Shown here in pieces: positions 57,678 to 64,000 of a stretch of DNA of 64,000 nucleotides. The notes under the pieces were generated by a model. That model had not been told where the DNA came from. It was given only the letters and a program-made list of their open reading frames with translations, and did no database searches. The DNA comes from Deltaproteobacteria bacterium IMCC39524 (lineage in GTDB: Bacteria > Desulfobacterota > Desulfuromonadia > Desulfuromonadales > BM103). The DNA lies in contig JARUHJ010000001.1 of assembly GCA_029667085.1 (NCBI GenBank), forward strand, positions 558,001-622,000. The letters run 5' to 3'. Within the stretch, counting starts at the first letter, position 1; the number at the start of each line of letters is the position of its first letter. The translations under genes and the position numbers were made by a program.

Positions 57678-57687
57678 TACATCGCTT

Positions 57688-57774
57688 GCCGAAGTGGTGG
57701 AATTGGTAGACACGCACGCTTGAGGGGCGTGTGTTCGAAAGGACGTGCGAGTTCGAGTCTCGCCTTCGGCACCA
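57688..57774 (+). tRNA. tRNA-Leu (GAG)
   Basis: 87 nt with a long variable arm and encoded CCA. Acceptor GCCGAAG / CTTCGGC, anticodon stem CACGC / GCGTG with loop TTGAGGG (anticodon GAG), T-loop TTCGAGT. It is the last core-genome feature before the AT-richer defence region, a usual position for a mobile-element attachment site. Confidence 0.95.
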
Positions 57775-57850
57775 ATACTTAGAACACTTGGTTTAACAGC
57801 TAGTTACAGAGTCACACAATCAGTTGGTACACCAGGTGGTACACCGATAT

Positions 57851-57883
57851 AGAGCTCTAAGGCTAGTCCTTAGGGCTCTTTTC
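57851..57883 (+). terminator. Terminator after tRNA-Leu
   Basis: AGAGCTCTAAGG / CCTTAGGGCTCT, a 12-bp stem with one mismatch and a 5-nt loop, then TTTTCT. It lies 77 bp past the tRNA. Confidence 0.75.
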
Positions 57884-57997
57884 TATTAGTGCTAACCATC
57901 CTATACCCTCGCACATCCCTGTTCAACAAAAAGAGGAGCAGCCTAAGTGGCAACTCCTCTGGTAATGGTTGAGTAATAATAGGTTTGAAGAACCTCT

Positions 57998-58273
57998 TTA
58001 AAGGCACCATTCGTCAGGATCAAAATCCTCCGCAAAACTCATGTATGTTATTGAAGCACGACCGTACTTCATCGTATGCCCGTGAAGCAGCAAGTATTTG
58101 TACTTTCCCGCAGCTAGCATAGACAAAATCGAAGGGTATACATCAGCAGGTACCGATCCGTAATATTCAGAGTTACTTCCTCTTGAGGTAATCCCACCTA
58201 CGGCTATAGGATCCTTCTCATAAACATCATCACTCGTCATGGCTAAAGCCTTCTGGCGATCAGCAAAGATCAT
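57998..58273 (-). CDS. Small hypothetical protein in the defence region
   Basis: 91 aa, not recognised, no membrane segments. Seen: IAVGGITSRGSNSEYYGSV, KYKYLLLHGHTMKYGRASI and an acidic end FAEDFDPDEWCL. The internal ATG 11 codons later is an alternative start. It lies last in a minus-strand run after the UvrD-like helicase. Confidence 0.55.
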   Translation of the reverse strand: MIFADRQKALAMTSDDVYEKDPIAVGGITSRGSNSEYYGSVPADVYPSILSMLAAGKYKYLLLHGHTMKYGRASITYMSFAEDFDPDEWCL

Positions 58274-58282
58274 TACGTCTAT

Positions 58283-58474
58283 CTAGCGACCAGCTAACTT
58301 TTTAGGGCCAAGGAGCTGACCGTCTATTTTGAGTGTATTGTGTTCTGAGTATGGACCGATACTGAAGCGCCTATTCGTGTCGAGACCAATTGAATAGTTT
58401 GGTGTCCAGTTGAGTATCTTGATGAGATATGAGGAGTATTCCTGAACAGCTTTTGTGGTCTTTTTTTGAGGCAT
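58283..58474 (-). CDS. Small hypothetical protein (63 aa)
   Basis: Not recognised. Seen: a Lys-rich N-terminus (MPQKKTTKAVQEYSSY) and a central ILNWTPNYSIGLDTNRRFSI. The ATG at 58474 follows GAGG by 5 nt; a GTG at 58480 is the alternative. It lies 22 bp after the helicase stop and 9 bp before the next small gene, so the three are probably one transcript. Confidence 0.55.
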   Translation of the reverse strand: MPQKKTTKAVQEYSSYLIKILNWTPNYSIGLDTNRRFSIGPYSEHNTLKIDGQLLGPKKLAGR

Positions 58475-58496
58475 ACTCACCTCACAATGCTTGTGT

Positions 58497-60611
58497 TTAT
58501 CTCTGCTTTATCTTTCGCAAATAAGTCTGGTAAAGAAACTCTTTCTCGCCAAGAGAAACCTCTGATGAAACTACGCCATCGTACAACTCTTTACAAACTT
58601 GTCTTGCACGGGACAACCCTGATTCATACAAAAACCGACTAGCTGTAATTTCTCGCTTTTGAGGTGAGCCAAAAAAGCCATTGTTAAGCCATGACATAAG
58701 ATACTCATCTTCAGGGGCAATGAGATTCACTCTTTCTACAGCTCTTGTAATCGCGACATAAAACAATCTGCGTTCTTGCTCAACACTGTCCTCGTCAGGC
58801 TTTTCATCTAAATGAGGGAATCTACCCTCTTCCAGCTTAGGTACAATGACCATAGGCCATTCACAGCCCTTGGCTTTGTGTACAGATGTAATCAAGACCG
58901 CATCTCTTTGGCCGTGTTCTGCACTCTTTGTGCTACTTAACTCATCATATAGTTTCGCAAGAGTAAGACCACGGCTTCTTGCATGCTCCATTAAAATCTC
59001 AATGGTCCTGACAGCATCGTTAGCTGCCTGCTTATTAATATGTCCTTTACGAACGCGTTCTTTAAAATCAGCAATATGGTTAATTTGCACTAGAGCTGAA
59101 CAGGCGTCCATATCATCACATAGAGTATCGGCAAGAGATGTCCATTGTTTTGAGACAGCAAGGAGTTGTCCTTTTACTTTAGCTGTCACGCCCCCACTGG
59201 AAGCCGCTTCTTCAAGTATCAACTTATAAGAAGTGGGGTTCTCTGTCAGTAAGGATATCAGCTCTTTTCGTTGTGCTCTCTTCAGATAGAGTTCCACATA
59301 CCTGAGCATTGACTTAAATAGATCGTTACGTCTATTCAAGTTGTCGATTGATGCTAACCCTTCAGGCAAAGCTAAGGCCATGAAACCAACAAGGGCCTGA
59401 ATTTCAGGACGTGATTTATATGATTTATTTTTATCGCCCACAATACACGGGATACCAGCAGCAAGAAGTTCCATCTCGGGCTCAAGTGCCATAGCCCAAC
59501 TCCGCACAAGAATAACAGACTCTTTATGCTTCCTACCCTTTTGTACCCATTGTCTAACAAGCTTTGTTATGAGGCCGTTACTATCACCATCAGGCTGTTG
59601 ATAAAACTTCACTTTCGTTTGAGGTGTAGTATTCCAAGACAAGCAGAGTTTCTTTGTCCTCTTCTTGTTTTGATACATAACTGAATTAGCAACACAGGAA
59701 AGTGTGTGACCGAATCGGTATGTATTCGACAAGGTATATCGCTTGGCCCCCACAAAGAACTGTTCAAAAAGACCTGTCATATAGTCGGGACGCGAACCAC
59801 GCCATTCATATATGCATTGGTCTTCATCCCCAACGGCCATGACCTCTGCTTTTGTTCCAGCGACACTTTGAAGCAGCTCCTGCTGAGACATGTTGATGTC
59901 TTGATATTCATCAATAAGAACATGCTGATAACGATTACCAACCCAATTATCTATACGTGGTGTCTCTCTTATCGCCATAGCAGGGTCATATATCATGTCT
60001 GCAAATGTTCTGAACCCATCTGCTAGCCGTAGTTCCTCAAAATATCGGTAAGCATCCTTAAAGACTTGGCGGATCTCTTCATAATCTACAGAGTTAACGA
60101 CTTCTTTCGGATGTAGCAAGTCACCTTTCCAGCGGTCGATCAATCCCAGGAATTCAGAGATAAACTCGTTGTCTTTATAGGCAACTTCCTTATCTTCACT
60201 ATCCTCTGCAGCCTTTTCTAAGGCATGCATCAAATGATTACGGTAAAGAAGGTTGTCAGTCCTATAAACTGCGCGTTCAAGGTCCCCTCGCTCAACCAAC
60301 CGATCACAGATACTTTTACCAAGCCCATGGTAGGTAAATACTTTAGGAGGGACAAACCCGTAAGGTTTACAAGCTTTTTCAAGTCGAGCAGAAAAGCTTT
60401 CCTTGATGTCTCGGTTGTACATAACAACCAGAATCTTGTCCTTGTTGACACCATCATTAAGAAGATACAGGACTCTTTGGATGAGTGTTTGAGTTTTACC
60501 AGAGCCCGCTACAGCAGAAACTAGTGCATGACCTTTTTTATGGGTGACAACAGCACGTTGTTCTTTGCTAAGCGGATCAAGAATCGAAATTAGGTTTTTT
60601 GTAGATGACAT
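58497..60611 (-). CDS. SF1 UvrD/Rep-like helicase
   Basis: 704-aa DNA helicase with all SF1A motifs: Walker A AVAGSGKTQTLIQRV (about 33-47), Walker B VLIDEYQDIN, motif III AVGDEDQCIYEWRGS, motif IV LSNTYRFG, motif V VLITSVHKAKGCEWP and motif VI QERRLFYVAITRA. Distinctive C-terminus after that with no PD-(D/E)XK fusion seen. Its ATG overlaps the stop of the CoiA-like gene by one base (TGATG), so the two are coupled. UvrD-like helicases occur in several defence systems (for example as GajB of Gabija), but no GajA-like ATPase/TOPRIM gene is next to it. Confidence 0.92.
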   Translation of the reverse strand: MSSTKNLISILDPLSKEQRAVVTHKKGHALVSAVAGSGKTQTLIQRVLYLLNDGVNKDKILVVMYNRDIKESFSARLEKACKPYGFVPPKVFTYHGLGKSICDRLVERGDLERAVYRTDNLLYRNHLMHALEKAAEDSEDKEVAYKDNEFISEFLGLIDRWKGDLLHPKEVVNSVDYEEIRQVFKDAYRYFEELRLADGFRTFADMIYDPAMAIRETPRIDNWVGNRYQHVLIDEYQDINMSQQELLQSVAGTKAEVMAVGDEDQCIYEWRGSRPDYMTGLFEQFFVGAKRYTLSNTYRFGHTLSCVANSVMYQNKKRTKKLCLSWNTTPQTKVKFYQQPDGDSNGLITKLVRQWVQKGRKHKESVILVRSWAMALEPEMELLAAGIPCIVGDKNKSYKSRPEIQALVGFMALALPEGLASIDNLNRRNDLFKSMLRYVELYLKRAQRKELISLLTENPTSYKLILEEAASSGGVTAKVKGQLLAVSKQWTSLADTLCDDMDACSALVQINHIADFKERVRKGHINKQAANDAVRTIEILMEHARSRGLTLAKLYDELSSTKSAEHGQRDAVLITSVHKAKGCEWPMVIVPKLEEGRFPHLDEKPDEDSVEQERRLFYVAITRAVERVNLIAPEDEYLMSWLNNGFFGSPQKREITASRFLYESGLSRARQVCKELYDGVVSSEVSLGEKEFLYQTYLRKIKQR

Positions 60612-61585
60612 CAGGACCTATGTATGGAGAAATCGCGGCAACGAAAAGCTTCGCTTGAAGTTATTTTTTTGTGATGTTTATTACATCGGAGATGGCCTTG
60701 AGTGCTTAATGGCTGAGACTCAACACAGACAATACAATTCCGAAGTTGAACACCATCATTGATGGCTGCTATCAAAAAAGACTTAAATTCTAGATGAGTA
60801 TTATCTCTTTCCCTACAGGGCGCTGAATAAACTACTGCCTCTCCAGTGACATCTCGCACCAAATTAGCAGGAGTTGAGCTTATAATTGATGCTCGGCCTT
60901 TACGGTCTACAACAAAGTAGTTAAAAGTGTGCTCGCAGCTTCCCTTACAAAGATCTCCAAGCTTAGGTTTTGGATTGAAATTTAATATTTCAACACCTGG
61001 AGTGCTGTCAGTAAGAGATGTCTTTTTAAGTATTGGAACATCGTCTTCTGTCTCAAGTAGATATTCAATAATCCTACGCCCACTTCCAATTTTCTCCTCA
61101 GATGATTTGTGGAACACAGCTATCTCTATATATAGAGCATCACCGGTCGTACTCGAGCTAAGCAGGACGTCCGGGCGGAAGCCATCGTGCCACATCTCTT
61201 CTTCGACCTTATCGAAATACCTAGTAAGGTCGTATTCCTCGACTTGACTATAGCGGCATGGATAACCTAAGAAGTCTTGATAATGTGTGCACTCAAAATT
61301 CGTTTCTAATGCGACAATAAAAGGTTTCTTTGCCTTGATGCAATTTGTATAAGTTTCTATGAACACACGCTTTCCAAGGCGATGTAGGTAGGTTTCGCCA
61401 CCACAGCCCTCGCCCGATACGTGAGCAAAGTGTTTAATATTCTTTTGTCCAAGTCTGGAGACAAGAGATGCCCCACAACCCACACATAAAAAAGGACCAA
61501 GGTCTGAGACGTTGGCCTTTTCCATCAAGGTGACATCCTGAACATCACCGAATCTATTAAATGCGTATCTATATGTAGCTGGCAT
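60611..61585 (-). CDS. CoiA-like nuclease with two cysteine clusters
   Basis: 324 aa. Seen: an N-terminal zinc-finger-like CVGCGASLVSRLGQKNIKHFAH (read as CxxC...H/H), a nuclease-like core with FRPDVLLSS and LYIEIAVFHKSSEEKIGSGR (an IEIAVxH...K pattern found in CoiA-type PD-(D/E)XK proteins), and a second cluster CIVC ... LRCNKHH at the C-terminus. CoiA is a competence-linked nuclease-like protein; here the neighbour is a UvrD-like helicase, coupled by TGATG. Possibly a DNA-processing partner in defence; that is inference. Confidence 0.72.
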   Translation of the reverse strand: MPATYRYAFNRFGDVQDVTLMEKANVSDLGPFLCVGCGASLVSRLGQKNIKHFAHVSGEGCGGETYLHRLGKRVFIETYTNCIKAKKPFIVALETNFECTHYQDFLGYPCRYSQVEEYDLTRYFDKVEEEMWHDGFRPDVLLSSSTTGDALYIEIAVFHKSSEEKIGSGRRIIEYLLETEDDVPILKKTSLTDSTPGVEILNFNPKPKLGDLCKGSCEHTFNYFVVDRKGRASIISSTPANLVRDVTGEAVVYSAPCRERDNTHLEFKSFLIAAINDGVQLRNCIVCVESQPLSTQGHLRCNKHHKKITSSEAFRCRDFSIHRS

Positions 61586-61635
61586 AGTAAGGACTTATAG
61601 CGTTTATTTGTATGATAAAAGTTTACTCGTGATAA

Positions 61636-62169
61636 TCATCGAATCAAATGGGCAGGCTCTGTTACGGCACGGTGCCAAAGGATATTTACATTCTGTAGGT
61701 CTATCTCGTTATTGACACATTCATCTCTGAGCGTCATAACATTCTGCATTATTCGTCCAATATCACCATCACCATAAATCAGTAATATCGCGACTGCGTA
61801 GCCTGCATAATTTGTGAAAGCAGACAGAGTTTCTAGGTCCTTTTTGATACCCGCCCTTGTAGCTATAATCGGTTTCACTTCTATAACAGCAAAATTGCCT
61901 CCCATATCACCAGGGATATGAACTAAAAAGTCTGGTTTTGTATTATCTAAACCGTTGTCCCTAATTAATGGATGACCTGCCTTGTCGACTTCTCCACTCA
62001 ATGTAAAGTGGCTCTGAGGAGGCCATAAAGACCTCATCTGATGATAGAGCTCATAACAATAAACACGCTCTCGATATAGAGGCTCCTCAGCACCATCAAT
62101 AGGAAGCTGAAAATATTCTTCAGGTACATTTCTTGTGGCTTGAATCAATATCTCTTGAAACTCATCCAT
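61636..62169 (-). CDS. Small PD-(D/E)XK-like protein
   Basis: 177 aa. Seen: LYRERVYCYELYHQMRSLWP at the N-terminus, a GEVDKAGHPLIRDNG loop and KPDFLVHIPGDMG then FAVIEVKPI, where D plus E-V-K make a PD-(D/E)XK-type metal site. The helix-rich C-terminus ends in LWHRAVTEPAHLIR. It is 3 bp after the helicase-nuclease gene and 50 bp before the CoiA-like gene. I take it as a restriction-type nuclease or an accessory subunit; no family name can be given with confidence. Confidence 0.7.
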   Translation of the reverse strand: MDEFQEILIQATRNVPEEYFQLPIDGAEEPLYRERVYCYELYHQMRSLWPPQSHFTLSGEVDKAGHPLIRDNGLDNTKPDFLVHIPGDMGGNFAVIEVKPIIATRAGIKKDLETLSAFTNYAGYAVAILLIYGDGDIGRIMQNVMTLRDECVNNEIDLQNVNILWHRAVTEPAHLIR

Positions 62170-62172
62170 GAG

Positions 62173-64000
62173 CTATGCCTTCCCCAATTCCTGCATGAGT
62201 GACGAATGCCATCCATCTATCTTGTCATTGCGGATTTGGTCAAAGAAGCCAACATAGTCTTCTGGAGAGAGGAAATAAAAATGGTACTGCCAAGGCTTCC
62301 CTGCTTCAACCAATGCTGCATTGAGTGCTTTAAAGTGTGCCATTCCATCACGGAACTTAGCCTTATTGCGATTGCCATCATCACCCTCTTGCTTAATTTC
62401 AACGATGAGAATTATTTTCGAATCCTTTAATTGGATTGCAAAGTCAGGGTTGAACTGTTCATTCACGGTATGTGTCTTGCCAGTTTTTGCTGGTTTATAC
62501 GAATAAGGAAATGAGTACACACCCCTATCAGGGATCTTAGTAAACCTCTCGACAAGCTCACTGTTCTCAAATAGAAGATCACTGAACTTACGTTCTGGTT
62601 CATGGCTGGCGTAGTGAATGTTGTTTGGTGACTTATACTTCGCAGCATCTATTTGATGGATGCGCTTAGCAATTTCACGTGCGCTATCGTTTAGACCGCT
62701 CTCATCTATCTGAGCTATTTGCACCCATTTACTGTATTGATCCCAAAGAAGTGATTCATCCTTATCAAAAGAGTTATCATCTCCAGTCACATGATAAACA
62801 GCACCGTGCTCCTTCATTCGGCTCTCAGAGAAAGACTGACGAGGTGCATTGCGGTAATCCACATCAACTAACTCTTTTGCGACTTGCGTCATCCTAGGAT
62901 GCTCACGACCTACAGGACGGAACAAAGGGCCAAAGGCTTGCTGGACCAACGTTAGATTCTCTCGGCTCAAATAATCCGTGTCATAACCGCCTTTTTTAAG
63001 AGCATCTTCGATAAACTTCTTGATCTTACTTTTAGGCCATTTAGTAGCTAGAACCTCATCCTTGTCACGAATGAACAATCGCAACATGCGAACAGCATCA
63101 TCAATCGCAACTAAATTATTATGTGTAATTTCGACGGCTAATTTACCGGTTTCTGAGAAGGTCGCATATTCAGTACTCTTCCGGCTCTGAGGCTTGAGAG
63201 TCAACGTAATCTTTGTCGCCTTCTCTTTCTTTGTCTCAACTGTTTGCTGAGCAGGCTCGTATTTCAGATTGTGCAATGGAATAACAAACTCTTCACGACG
63301 GCTGTCATAACCCCAAGAGAGCGTATTTTCAACTTCAAGGACCTCCTTAATGAGATTGGCTATCTCCTCTGACCATGCTTCGTGGTTAGTGATTTTAACA
63401 AGTGGCTGTACGTCCAGCTCAGAGGGAACTCGAAGTCCACGACCGAGCACTTGAGATATAAGTAGTTTTGACGCAAAGGCTCGAGATTCATGTGGGACAA
63501 TTTGAAATACATTTTTTACGTCCCATCCTTCAGTTAGCATGCTTACTGAAACGATCCACTCCACAGAGCTAGAAGGTTCGTCGACTTTCTTTAACGCTGC
63601 CAGGTTTTCCTTTCTACGCTTATCAGGGGAGTCTTTGTCACCACGAGGTTCGTATGCTGATTCGACTCGCGCCTTGGCTGCTTTAGCTGAAGGGATTCCT
63701 GAAGTTACCCAAATTGCCTTTTCCTCTGCTTCTTCAGGGCTGATTTTTTCTTTCTTAACAAGATAATCAATTAGCTCTTTCCAGACTTCTACACAGCCAG
63801 CAATGTCTTGAGTGATGATAATAGAAATTGGGCGAAGCTTTGTACCGTAATCTTTCCAGTTTTGTTGATGGACAGCGTAGGTCTTATCCCAGCTCTGCGC
63901 CTTATGTGTATCTTCAGTAACATAGTCAGGCTTTTTAACAACTTTCAATTCAATAGCCTGTTTGATCCCAAAGCGATAGATCACATCAGGAAAGTATTCA
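62173..64000 (-). CDS. Type III-restriction-like DEAD/DEAH helicase-nuclease (5' part missing)
   Basis: Partial gene: the frame stays open to the right edge (the last window codons read EYFPDV-IYRFGI), so the N-terminal helicase half is outside. Seen: SF2 motifs V and VI (VSMLTEGWDVKNVFQIVPHE, SQVLGRGLRVP) near the left half and a C-terminal PD-(D/E)XK core FNPDFAIQL ... IILIVEIKQEG. This matches Res subunits of type III-like systems and the large helicase-nuclease restriction proteins sometimes found without a Mod partner. No methyltransferase is visible in the window. It is the first gene visible of the minus-strand defence operon. Confidence 0.87.
   Translation of the reverse strand, partial: EYFPDVIYRFGIKQAIELKVVKKPDYVTEDTHKAQSWDKTYAVHQQNWKDYGTKLRPISIIITQDIAGCVEVWKELIDYLVKKEKISPEEAEEKAIWVTSGIPSAKAAKARVESAYEPRGDKDSPDKRRKENLAALKKVDEPSSSVEWIVSVSMLTEGWDVKNVFQIVPHESRAFASKLLISQVLGRGLRVPSELDVQPLVKITNHEAWSEEIANLIKEVLEVENTLSWGYDSRREEFVIPLHNLKYEPAQQTVETKKEKATKITLTLKPQSRKSTEYATFSETGKLAVEITHNNLVAIDDAVRMLRLFIRDKDEVLATKWPKSKIKKFIEDALKKGGYDTDYLSRENLTLVQQAFGPLFRPVGREHPRMTQVAKELVDVDYRNAPRQSFSESRMKEHGAVYHVTGDDNSFDKDESLLWDQYSKWVQIAQIDESGLNDSAREIAKRIHQIDAAKYKSPNNIHYASHEPERKFSDLLFENSELVERFTKIPDRGVYSFPYSYKPAKTGKTHTVNEQFNPDFAIQLKDSKIILIVEIKQEGDDGNRNKAKFRDGMAHFKALNAALVEAGKPWQYHFYFLSPEDYVGFFDQIRNDKIDGWHSSLMQELGKA

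What the first reader, a model, noticed from the sequence alone, without database searches (positions are those of the whole stretch)
57775..64000. Candidate defence operon behind tRNA-Leu: Res-type helicase-nuclease, PD-(D/E)XK protein, CoiA-like nuclease, UvrD-like helicase
Seen: six minus-strand genes in close order (gaps of 3 and 50 bp, a 1-bp overlap, 22 and 9 bp) in DNA that looks AT-richer than the rest, starting directly after a tRNA-Leu. Two different helicase classes (SF2 and SF1) and at least three likely nucleases stand together. Known: Res-type and UvrD-type helicases and PD-(D/E)XK nucleases are staple parts of phage-defence loci. Inference: this gene set does not match a named system I can recall, such as Gabija, Hachiman, Zorya or type III RM, since GajA, HamA and Mod are not visible. 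It could be one composite system or two neighbouring ones.
Basis: partly seen in the sequence, partly recalled or inferred. Interest (0 to 1): 0.75.

Follow-up and report, generated by a model that had tools for sequence, protein, structure and literature searches.

The report
Mobile island with restriction and nuclease–helicase genes
A mobile DNA element sitting in a tRNA gene carries a restriction–modification pair whose second half lay just outside the window, plus a separate nuclease–helicase gene pair that also travels on many plasmids and may be an undescribed phage-defence module.

Summary
The six minus-strand genes are real. They are one end of a 20,954-bp element inserted in tRNA-Leu: an 89-bp perfect repeat of the whole tRNA flanks it, and in 6 of 7 congeners that keep the site both flanks meet round one tRNA. 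Mod-Res is a stand-alone type III-like restriction pair: of 14 other Res loci, 12 show Mod, and none of the 12 with room downstream shows the 177-aa, CoiA or this UvrD gene. The rest is separable cargo. The 177-aa PD-(D/E)XK protein occurs in nine other places without CoiA. CoiA-like nuclease plus UvrD-like helicase recurs as a two-gene cassette: 13 of 80 CoiA loci, 785 of 72,556 plasmid records. So this is a composite defence island, not one new system. The interesting residue is the CoiA-UvrD pair: no paper held contains both names, and one CoiA-domain protein is experimentally anti-phage (PMC9519451). That the pair is a defence, and that this copy shares its origin with the plasmid cassette, is not shown.

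The parts
57686..57774 (+). tRNA-Leu(gag) and left copy of the 89-bp repeat; the right copy is at G000:C1:636640-636728 (window-equivalent 78640-78728)
   Evidence: ARAGORN; 89 of 89 bases identical; one copy in the stretches of 7 congeners
57998..58273 (-). 91-aa ORF, no relatives found in what was searched
   Evidence: no plasmid match at E 0.01
58283..58480 (-). 65-aa ORF, no family match
   Evidence: collections not searched with it
58497..60611 (-). UvrD-like SF1 helicase, 704 aa, second gene of the CoiA-UvrD pair
   Evidence: PF00580 5.3e-48; GSGKT, DEYQD, motifs III, V and VI; closest solved structure by sequence PcrA 1pjr, 9.6e-49
60611..61585 (-). CoiA-like predicted nuclease, 324 aa: Cys/His cluster at the N-terminus (C34, C37, H52, H55, C61), core residues E64, D139, E154, H159, K165, C-terminal cysteines C284, C287, C301, C316; its end overlaps the UvrD start by 1 bp
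   Evidence: CoiA_N PF25164 34.6 bits over cut-off 26.3; conservation in 44 sequences; model pLDDT 88.7; residues 61-206 align with restriction-endonuclease-like 3ijm at Z 8.4
61636..62169 (-). 177-aa predicted PD-(D/E)XK protein (E34, D80, E97-V-K99)
   Evidence: 5-row alignment; model pLDDT 74.5, best VIA row BamHI, Z 8.2; no match in Pfam, PADLOC, NCBIfam, PHROGs
62173..64000 (-). Res subunit of a type III-like restriction-modification pair (continues to 64773; 866 aa): SF2 helicase plus C-terminal PD...EIK; overlaps Mod (64770-67205) by 4 bp
   Evidence: ResIII PF04851 and RE_endonuc PF19778; DEAH, QVLGRGLR, PD...EIK; ATGAGKS read by eye in the translation

Best explanation
The region is the cargo end of a 20.95-kb integrative mobile element in tRNA-Leu. 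Its cargo is a stack of separable genes, transcribed one way: an AAA_13 ATPase, a 330-aa PD-(D/E)XK-type protein, a type III-like Mod-Res pair, a small PD-(D/E)XK protein, and a CoiA-like nuclease gene overlapping a UvrD-like helicase gene. Shown by sequence: the element, its empty site in congeners, the gene order, the domains and catalytic-type residues, and the separate occurrence of the parts elsewhere. Inferred: Mod protects the element's and host's DNA by methylation while Res cuts unmodified incoming DNA; the UvrD protein tracks along and unwinds DNA (3'-5', as PcrA/Rep do) and exposes strands to the CoiA nuclease, so that the pair degrades foreign or cut DNA. Beside Mod-Res this would act as a clean-up of restricted ends; on plasmids without restriction genes it would act alone.
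For: Element: 89-bp perfect repeat, integrase at the far end, GC about 0.42 against about 0.51, flanks meeting round one tRNA in 6 of 7 congeners. Mod: N6_N4_Mtase 1.5e-44 with DPPF (120) before FCGGG (375). Mod-Res apart from the rest: of 14 other Res loci 12 have a Mod relative (in 11 the two matches lie within 170 bp; in L171 two genes lie between), the other two are cut by contig ends; the 177-aa, CoiA, 330-aa and AAA_13 genes match in 0 of 14, and 12 of 14 show at least 2.9 kb downstream of Res; likewise on two plasmids. CoiA-UvrD pair: 13 of 80 genome loci have a UvrD relative directly behind CoiA on the same strand; 785 of 72,556 plasmid records hold at least 80% of the pHCM1 pair; 115 of 5,426 E. 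coli genomes do, 122 of all 123 places being on plasmids; surroundings differ. CoiA core: invariant E64, D139, E154, K165 in 44 sequences, restriction-type fold, agreeing with the published assignment of CoiA to PD-(D/E)XK (PMC1189080, passages). Defence link: a CoiA-domain protein belongs to one of 21 validated E. coli anti-phage systems (PMC9519451, section 7 and passages); CoiA relatives without UvrD stand within two called genes of type I (three loci), type IIG, type III, BREX and HKD-Snf2 genes (one each) in seven loci picked by eye.
Against: No activity was measured. A near/far control did not show restriction genes to cluster at CoiA: 6 of 80 loci within 3 kb (427 kb) against 4 of 80 beyond 5 kb (442 kb), self matches left out, queries taken mostly from the neighbours themselves. 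CoiA relatives were not found in 50,697 phage records nor confirmed in viral contigs. 67 of 80 CoiA relatives have no UvrD relative directly behind them (some loci end soon after the gene; L044 has one on the opposite strand). This UvrD scores higher against four UvrDs without CoiA (374, 354, 321 and 307 bits) than against the best paired one (304.5) (no CoiA match beside any of the eight unpaired ones checked). The trees do not settle common descent of the pair: one clade in 16% of bootstraps for UvrD, 18% for CoiA (AU p 0.517, not rejected). The nine-gene close order (gaps -4 to 68 bp) would also fit one operon with a joint function in this one genome.
Confidence: 0.75

Rival explanations
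1. One functional multi-gene system: AAA_13 ATPase, 330-aa protein, Mod-Res, 177-aa protein, CoiA and UvrD act together, e.g. a type III-like core with obligate accessory nucleases and a helicase.
For: Near-continuous same-strand order with overlaps of 4 and 1 bp and gaps of 3-68 bp. CoiA also follows a type III MTase-REase pair at 71 bp in Phaeocystidibacter (L015), the first row of the CoiA scan. The 177-aa relative follows a nuclease/UvrD-type operon in two Rhizobium plasmids, in one of which (L009) a BPTD_3080-type endonuclease and a methyltransferase lie 3-9 kb away on the other strand.
Against: No second genome with the set: 0 of 14 Res loci, 0 of 80 CoiA loci with the 177-aa, 330-aa or AAA_13 gene, no CoiA, 330-aa or AAA_13 gene at any of nine 177-aa relatives, and no Mod, Res, 177-aa, CoiA or UvrD at the five phylum relatives of the 330-aa protein. 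All these samples are capped.
Confidence: 0.1
2. CoiA-UvrD is not a defence but a DNA-processing module of mobile elements: it helps establishment, recombination or end-processing of the element's own DNA.
For: CoiA is known from competence and recombination (PMC1189080, passages). In pHCM1 the pair lies among conjugation genes between trhN and trhI. Some other pairs lie near integrase or transposase genes. The near/far control gave no clustering with restriction genes.
Against: Defence genes also ride in such places; a CoiA-domain protein is experimentally anti-phage; here and in several loci picked by eye CoiA stands with restriction genes.
Confidence: 0.3
3. The close pairing of CoiA and UvrD here is stacking of two cargo genes, or a pairing that arose separately, not the same module as the gammaproteobacterial cassette.
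For: The window UvrD scores higher against four UvrDs without CoiA than against any paired one; pairs form one clade in only 16-18% of bootstraps; the window rows are long branches in both trees.
Against: Same order, same strand and overlapping ends as in the 12 other pairs printed; the window CoiA falls in one supported set (99/90) with the paired CoiAs and two without UvrD; a C-terminal block shared with the paired UvrDs, not compared there with unpaired ones.
Confidence: 0.3

Closest known systems
Type III restriction-modification (Mod-Res)
   Same: Adjacent Mod (DPPF before FxGxG) and Res (SF2 helicase with C-terminal PD-(D/E)XK)
   Different: Distant from characterised Res proteins: no PDB relative at E 0.1, NCBIfam BPTD_3080 91.9 bits against a cut-off of 800, PADLOC REase_III only a short stretch, and Mod's best PADLOC model is a type II MTase
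Gabija (GajA-GajB)
   Same: A nuclease gene followed by a UvrD-like helicase gene; the UvrD matches PADLOC GajB models at 3e-52
   Different: The partner is CoiA-like, without a recognised ATPase or TOPRIM domain
CoiA-domain anti-phage system of E. coli (Vassallo et al. 2022, PMC9519451; section 7 and passages seen)
   Same: CoiA domain in a defence gene
   Different: The text seen names no helicase partner and does not tell which system it is; supplements could not be read, so homology was not tested
CoiA-UvrD pair of pHCM1 and similar plasmids
   Same: Same two genes, order and overlapping ends
   Different: CoiA 27% and UvrD 32% identical; in pHCM1 it sits among conjugation genes, not beside restriction genes; no function found in print
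PrrC/RloC-type AAA_13 ATPases
   Same: AAA_13 127.6 bits (cut-off 36), CPFC motif, invariant R675, E679 and H733/H734 in four sequences
   Different: Only a weak PADLOC PrrC match (0.0031); best PADLOC match is the candidate family PDC-S06; likeness to the PrrC triad is recalled

Membership tests
Type III restriction-modification | Mod with N6_N4_Mtase domain, DPPY/F motif before FxGxG | tested here: met
   PF01555 1.5e-44; DPPF 120, FCGGG 375
Type III restriction-modification | Res with SF2 helicase motifs and PD-(D/E)XK nuclease | tested here: met
   PF04851 53.4 bits and PF19778 24.3 bits, both over cut-off; DEAH, QVLGRGLR, PD...EIK
Type III restriction-modification | Mod and Res adjacent and conserved as a pair | tested here: met
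   4-bp overlap here; Mod relative in 12 of 14 other Res loci
Type III restriction-modification | Methylates and cuts DNA at an asymmetric site | not testable with these tools
   needs enzyme or methylome data
BPTD_3080 restriction endonuclease (NCBIfam NF046055) | Score above the curated cut-off of 800 bits | tested here: not met
   91.9 bits
Gabija | GajB-like UvrD helicase | tested here: met
   PADLOC GajB 3.3e-52, though PcrA and Rep models score as well
Gabija | GajA (ATPase plus TOPRIM nuclease) next to it | tested here: not met
   CoiA partner matched only a weak DruB model (0.029); no GajA among the PADLOC rows shown for nine genes (for UvrD and Mod only the best 25 of 58 and 66 rows are shown)
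CoiA family | CoiA_N domain (PF25164) | tested here: met
   34.6 bits, cut-off 26.3
CoiA family | CoiA nuclease domain | tested here: inconclusive
   no Pfam row for it at E up to 1, but restriction-like fold and conserved D139/E154
CoiA family | role in competence | not testable with these tools
   needs experiment
PrrC/RloC anticodon nuclease | AAA_13 domain | tested here: met
PrrC/RloC anticodon nuclease | R-E-H nuclease triad (recalled) | tested here: inconclusive
   R675, E679, H733/H734 invariant in 4 sequences, E-to-H spacing unlike the recalled PrrC one

The most novel reading that the evidence does not exclude
CoiA-UvrD is an undescribed two-gene immune module, a nuclease-helicase pair that works like Gabija with an unrelated nuclease: the helicase loads on invading DNA and the CoiA nuclease destroys it. 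It is carried by hundreds of enterobacterial plasmids and by chromosomal mobile elements, and in this element it backs up a type III-like restriction pair by degrading cut DNA.
Probability: 0.38. Interest if true: 0.6.

Novelty: new variant of a known kind. Interest (0 to 1): 0.4.

Why it matters
As a whole the region is an ordinary composite defence island. If the pair does protect against phage, two genes held by about 1% of the plasmid records searched (785 of 72,556, many near-identical), mostly labelled 'hypothetical protein' or 'competence protein CoiA family protein' and 'ATP-dependent helicase' in the rows listed, would gain a function, and the 2022 finding of a CoiA domain in an anti-phage system would gain a testable mechanism.

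Tried and rejected
Single-system reading: rejected because the parts occur apart. Gabija: rejected, no GajA seen. A phage origin of the pair: no CoiA relative in phage records and none confirmed in viral contigs. CoiA in the window's family: own copy only, 1 of 22 genomes. Clustering of restriction genes round CoiA: near/far 6 against 4 of 80 loci, so not claimed. Proof that the window pair and the gammaproteobacterial pair share an origin: unresolved; trees held 24 UvrD and 40 CoiA rows chosen from those at hand; UvrDs without CoiA outscore paired ones. Because of that last fact, noticed on recheck, I lowered the novel-case odds by 0.02 and raised the third rival by 0.05. The search is partly circular: three of the five paired genomes supplied rows of the query A2. 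Foldseek on the CoiA and 177-aa models gave nothing below E 0.001; only the second-look aligner gave middling restriction-fold rows (Z 8.4 and 8.2), for the 177-aa protein among rows of unrelated folds. Solved structures by sequence: none for CoiA at E 1 or Res at E 0.1. Promoter and terminator scans were no better than shuffles. Searches of print, open PubMed Central papers only: CoiA+UvrD 0, with 'defence' or 'defense' 0, CoiA-like+'phage defense' 0, 'competence protein CoiA'+'defense island' 0, CoiA+nuclease+helicase+antiphage 3, CoiA+anti-phage 8, type III restriction+CoiA 3, IncHI+CoiA 25, 20 listed, none opened (the word also matches a surname), IncHI1+UvrD+helicase+R27 1, not opened. 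In some searches only three candidates per genome were scored, so 2 of 345 and 7 of 321 genomes with a match at E 1e-90 are lower bounds. That most of the plasmids are of the IncHI kind is recalled; only pHCM1's transfer genes were viewed, and an Enterobacter IncC plasmid carries the pair too.


Full report
What is there. Read in its genome (window = G000:C1:558001-622000), the region is one end of an insertion between two copies of tRNA-Leu(gag). The copies are part of an 89-bp repeat without a mismatch, 20,954 bp apart start to start. Of ten other genomes of the genus searched, seven match secG and this tRNA. All seven stretches hold a single tRNA-Leu. In six of them the sequence continues past the tRNA into the window genome's right flank (matches of 133-142 bases that include the repeat; in L135 also the SRAP gene further on); in the seventh, L138, only the repeat itself matches, so there only the single tRNA is shown. 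GC of the element is about 0.42.

Gene content, in window-equivalent numbers, all minus strand: integrase 77219-78559 (Phage_integrase, DUF6538), 431-aa protein with a weak replication-O match 75930-77225, D5-type primase-helicase 73002-74366, ArdC-like 71637-72548, RadC-like 71064-71588, AAA_13 ATPase 68327-70621, 330-aa protein with PD...ENE 67266-68258, Mod 64770-67205, Res 62173-64773, 177-aa protein 61636-62169, CoiA-like 60611-61585, UvrD-like 58497-60611, and two small ORFs. Gaps from the ATPase to the end are 68, 60, -4, 3, 50, -1, 16 and 9 bp. No capsid or relaxase gene was recognised among the genes scanned; a few short ORFs in the integrase half were not scanned.

Mod-Res. Mod has the N6_N4_Mtase domain with DPPF before FCGGG; Res has DEAH, QVLGRGLR, a Walker A (ATGAGKS, read by eye) and a C-terminal PD...EIK. 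In 395 genomes of the phylum 15 including the window's have a Res relative at E 1e-40. Of the 14 others, 12 have a Mod relative; in 11 the Mod and Res matches lie within 170 bp, in L171 two genes lie between; L170 and L177 are cut by contig ends. The 177-aa, CoiA, 330-aa and AAA_13 genes match in 0 of 14, and the one UvrD match (L167, 6e-5, 74 residues) is to a large different helicase. Twelve of the 14 show at least 2.9 kb downstream of Res, where the window has the 177-aa gene, CoiA and UvrD; L167 and L172 show under 0.4 kb. Two plasmids carry Mod-Res without the other genes. This is a self-contained type III-like restriction pair, distant from those with structures.

The 177-aa protein. Relatives: 2 other of 395 phylum genomes, 4 of 72,556 plasmids, 3 viral contigs. 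E34, D80, E97 and K99 are kept in both alignments (one viral row is partial). All nine places were searched with all element proteins: no CoiA, 330-aa or AAA_13 relative at any; L009 and L132 have distant Mod-type matches, L009 a distant Res-type one, L132 a weak UvrD one (2e-4), and L104 an integrase match. The gene stands beside an integrase or recombinase in two viral contigs (L131, L129) and behind a PD-(D/E)XK/UvrD operon in two Rhizobium plasmids. It looks like a portable accessory gene.

CoiA-UvrD. In 80 genome loci found with a CoiA profile (99 relatives, best 80 kept), 13 have a UvrD relative directly behind CoiA on the same strand, all gammaproteobacteria by name, none with a Mod, Res, 177-aa, 330-aa or AAA_13 match in the locus. 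In the 12 pairs printed (nine of these and three plasmids) the two ORFs overlap with starts as called, as here. Surroundings differ: chromosomes, some near integrase fragments, conjugation genes, pHCM1 between trhN and trhI. The pHCM1 pair is at least 80% covered in 785 of 72,556 plasmid records and in 115 of 5,426 E. coli genomes. Five genomes with the pair hold it as their top UvrD of this kind (three of them supplied query rows; one, G416, has a second UvrD at 4e-109), and five genomes with CoiA but no pair hold none at E 1e-60. The 44-row alignment keeps E64, H68, K72, E130, D139, E154, K165 and, in at least 90%, H159 and cysteines at both ends. The model is confident (pLDDT 88.7) and its core is restriction-endonuclease-like, including a DUF820 protein among the best rows, in line with the published relation of CoiA to COG4636 (PMC1189080, passages).

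Does the window pair belong with the others? The CoiA tree puts it in one supported set (99/90) with the paired CoiAs, a Verrucomicrobiales CoiA and a Sulfurimonas one without UvrD; a single clade of pairs is neither shown (18% of bootstraps) nor rejected (AU p 0.517). The UvrD tree is likewise open (16%), and by score the window UvrD is nearer to four UvrDs without CoiA (374 to 307 bits) than to the best paired one (304.5). Either the pair is old and diverged, or the pairing arose more than once; the data do not choose.

Function. Shown by others: a CoiA domain occurs in one of 21 validated E. coli anti-phage systems (PMC9519451, section 7 and passages; which system, and its partners, are not in the text seen). 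Seen here: seven CoiA loci without UvrD, picked by eye, lie within two called genes of type I, IIG, III, BREX or HKD-Snf2 genes, among them a type III pair followed by CoiA in Phaeocystidibacter. Against: the near/far control shows no clustering. The proposed mechanism, unwinding by UvrD and strand destruction by CoiA, with a clean-up role beside Res, is inference.

Verdict. The finding is real but is a composite mobile defence island seen through a window edge. Its restriction core is an ordinary, distant type III-like pair. The CoiA-UvrD cassette is the part worth an experiment.

Noticed in passing
window-equivalent 68327-70621 (L002:12327-14621): AAA_13 ATPase with CPFC motif and invariant R675, E679 and H733/H734 in four relatives, recalling PrrC/RloC nucleases; relatives in 37 of 72,556 plasmids at E 1e-20; in the three viewed, next to a DUF262 HNH gene, a DNA methyltransferase two genes on, or a restriction S subunit and helicase.
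   Followed up: partly
window-equivalent 67266-68258 (L002:11266-12258): 330-aa protein of two halves: the N-terminal PD...ENE half has relatives in four phylum genomes, the C-terminal half in one phylum genome and in two plasmid genes annotated as GIY-YIG nucleases.
   Followed up: partly
L074, L075, L077-L082, L087, L090: In these ten loci, mostly Bacteroidales, CoiA is preceded, within about 10 bp or overlapping, by a similar-looking gene of about 155-195 aa (M...KNLKKFM... in several), another possible CoiA partner (whose output was cut for part of the loci).
   Followed up: no
L009:1663-9939 and L132:483-7931: Rhizobium plasmids with ThiF-like genes (in L009 also a multiubiquitin protein) before a PD-(D/E)XK and UvrD operon, followed by the 177-aa relative.
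   Followed up: no
L135:809-1453: In the closest congener about 645 bp of other DNA lie between the sequence just after tRNA-Leu and the SRAP gene, perhaps a second small insertion at the same spot.
   Followed up: no
L042:8154-9969: The Motilimonas CoiA-UvrD pair lies next to what reads by eye like a YifB/ComM fragment, perhaps an insertion in that gene.
   Followed up: no
window 57998-58480: Two small ORFs at the element's end without family matches; possibly element-specific or remnants.
   Followed up: partly
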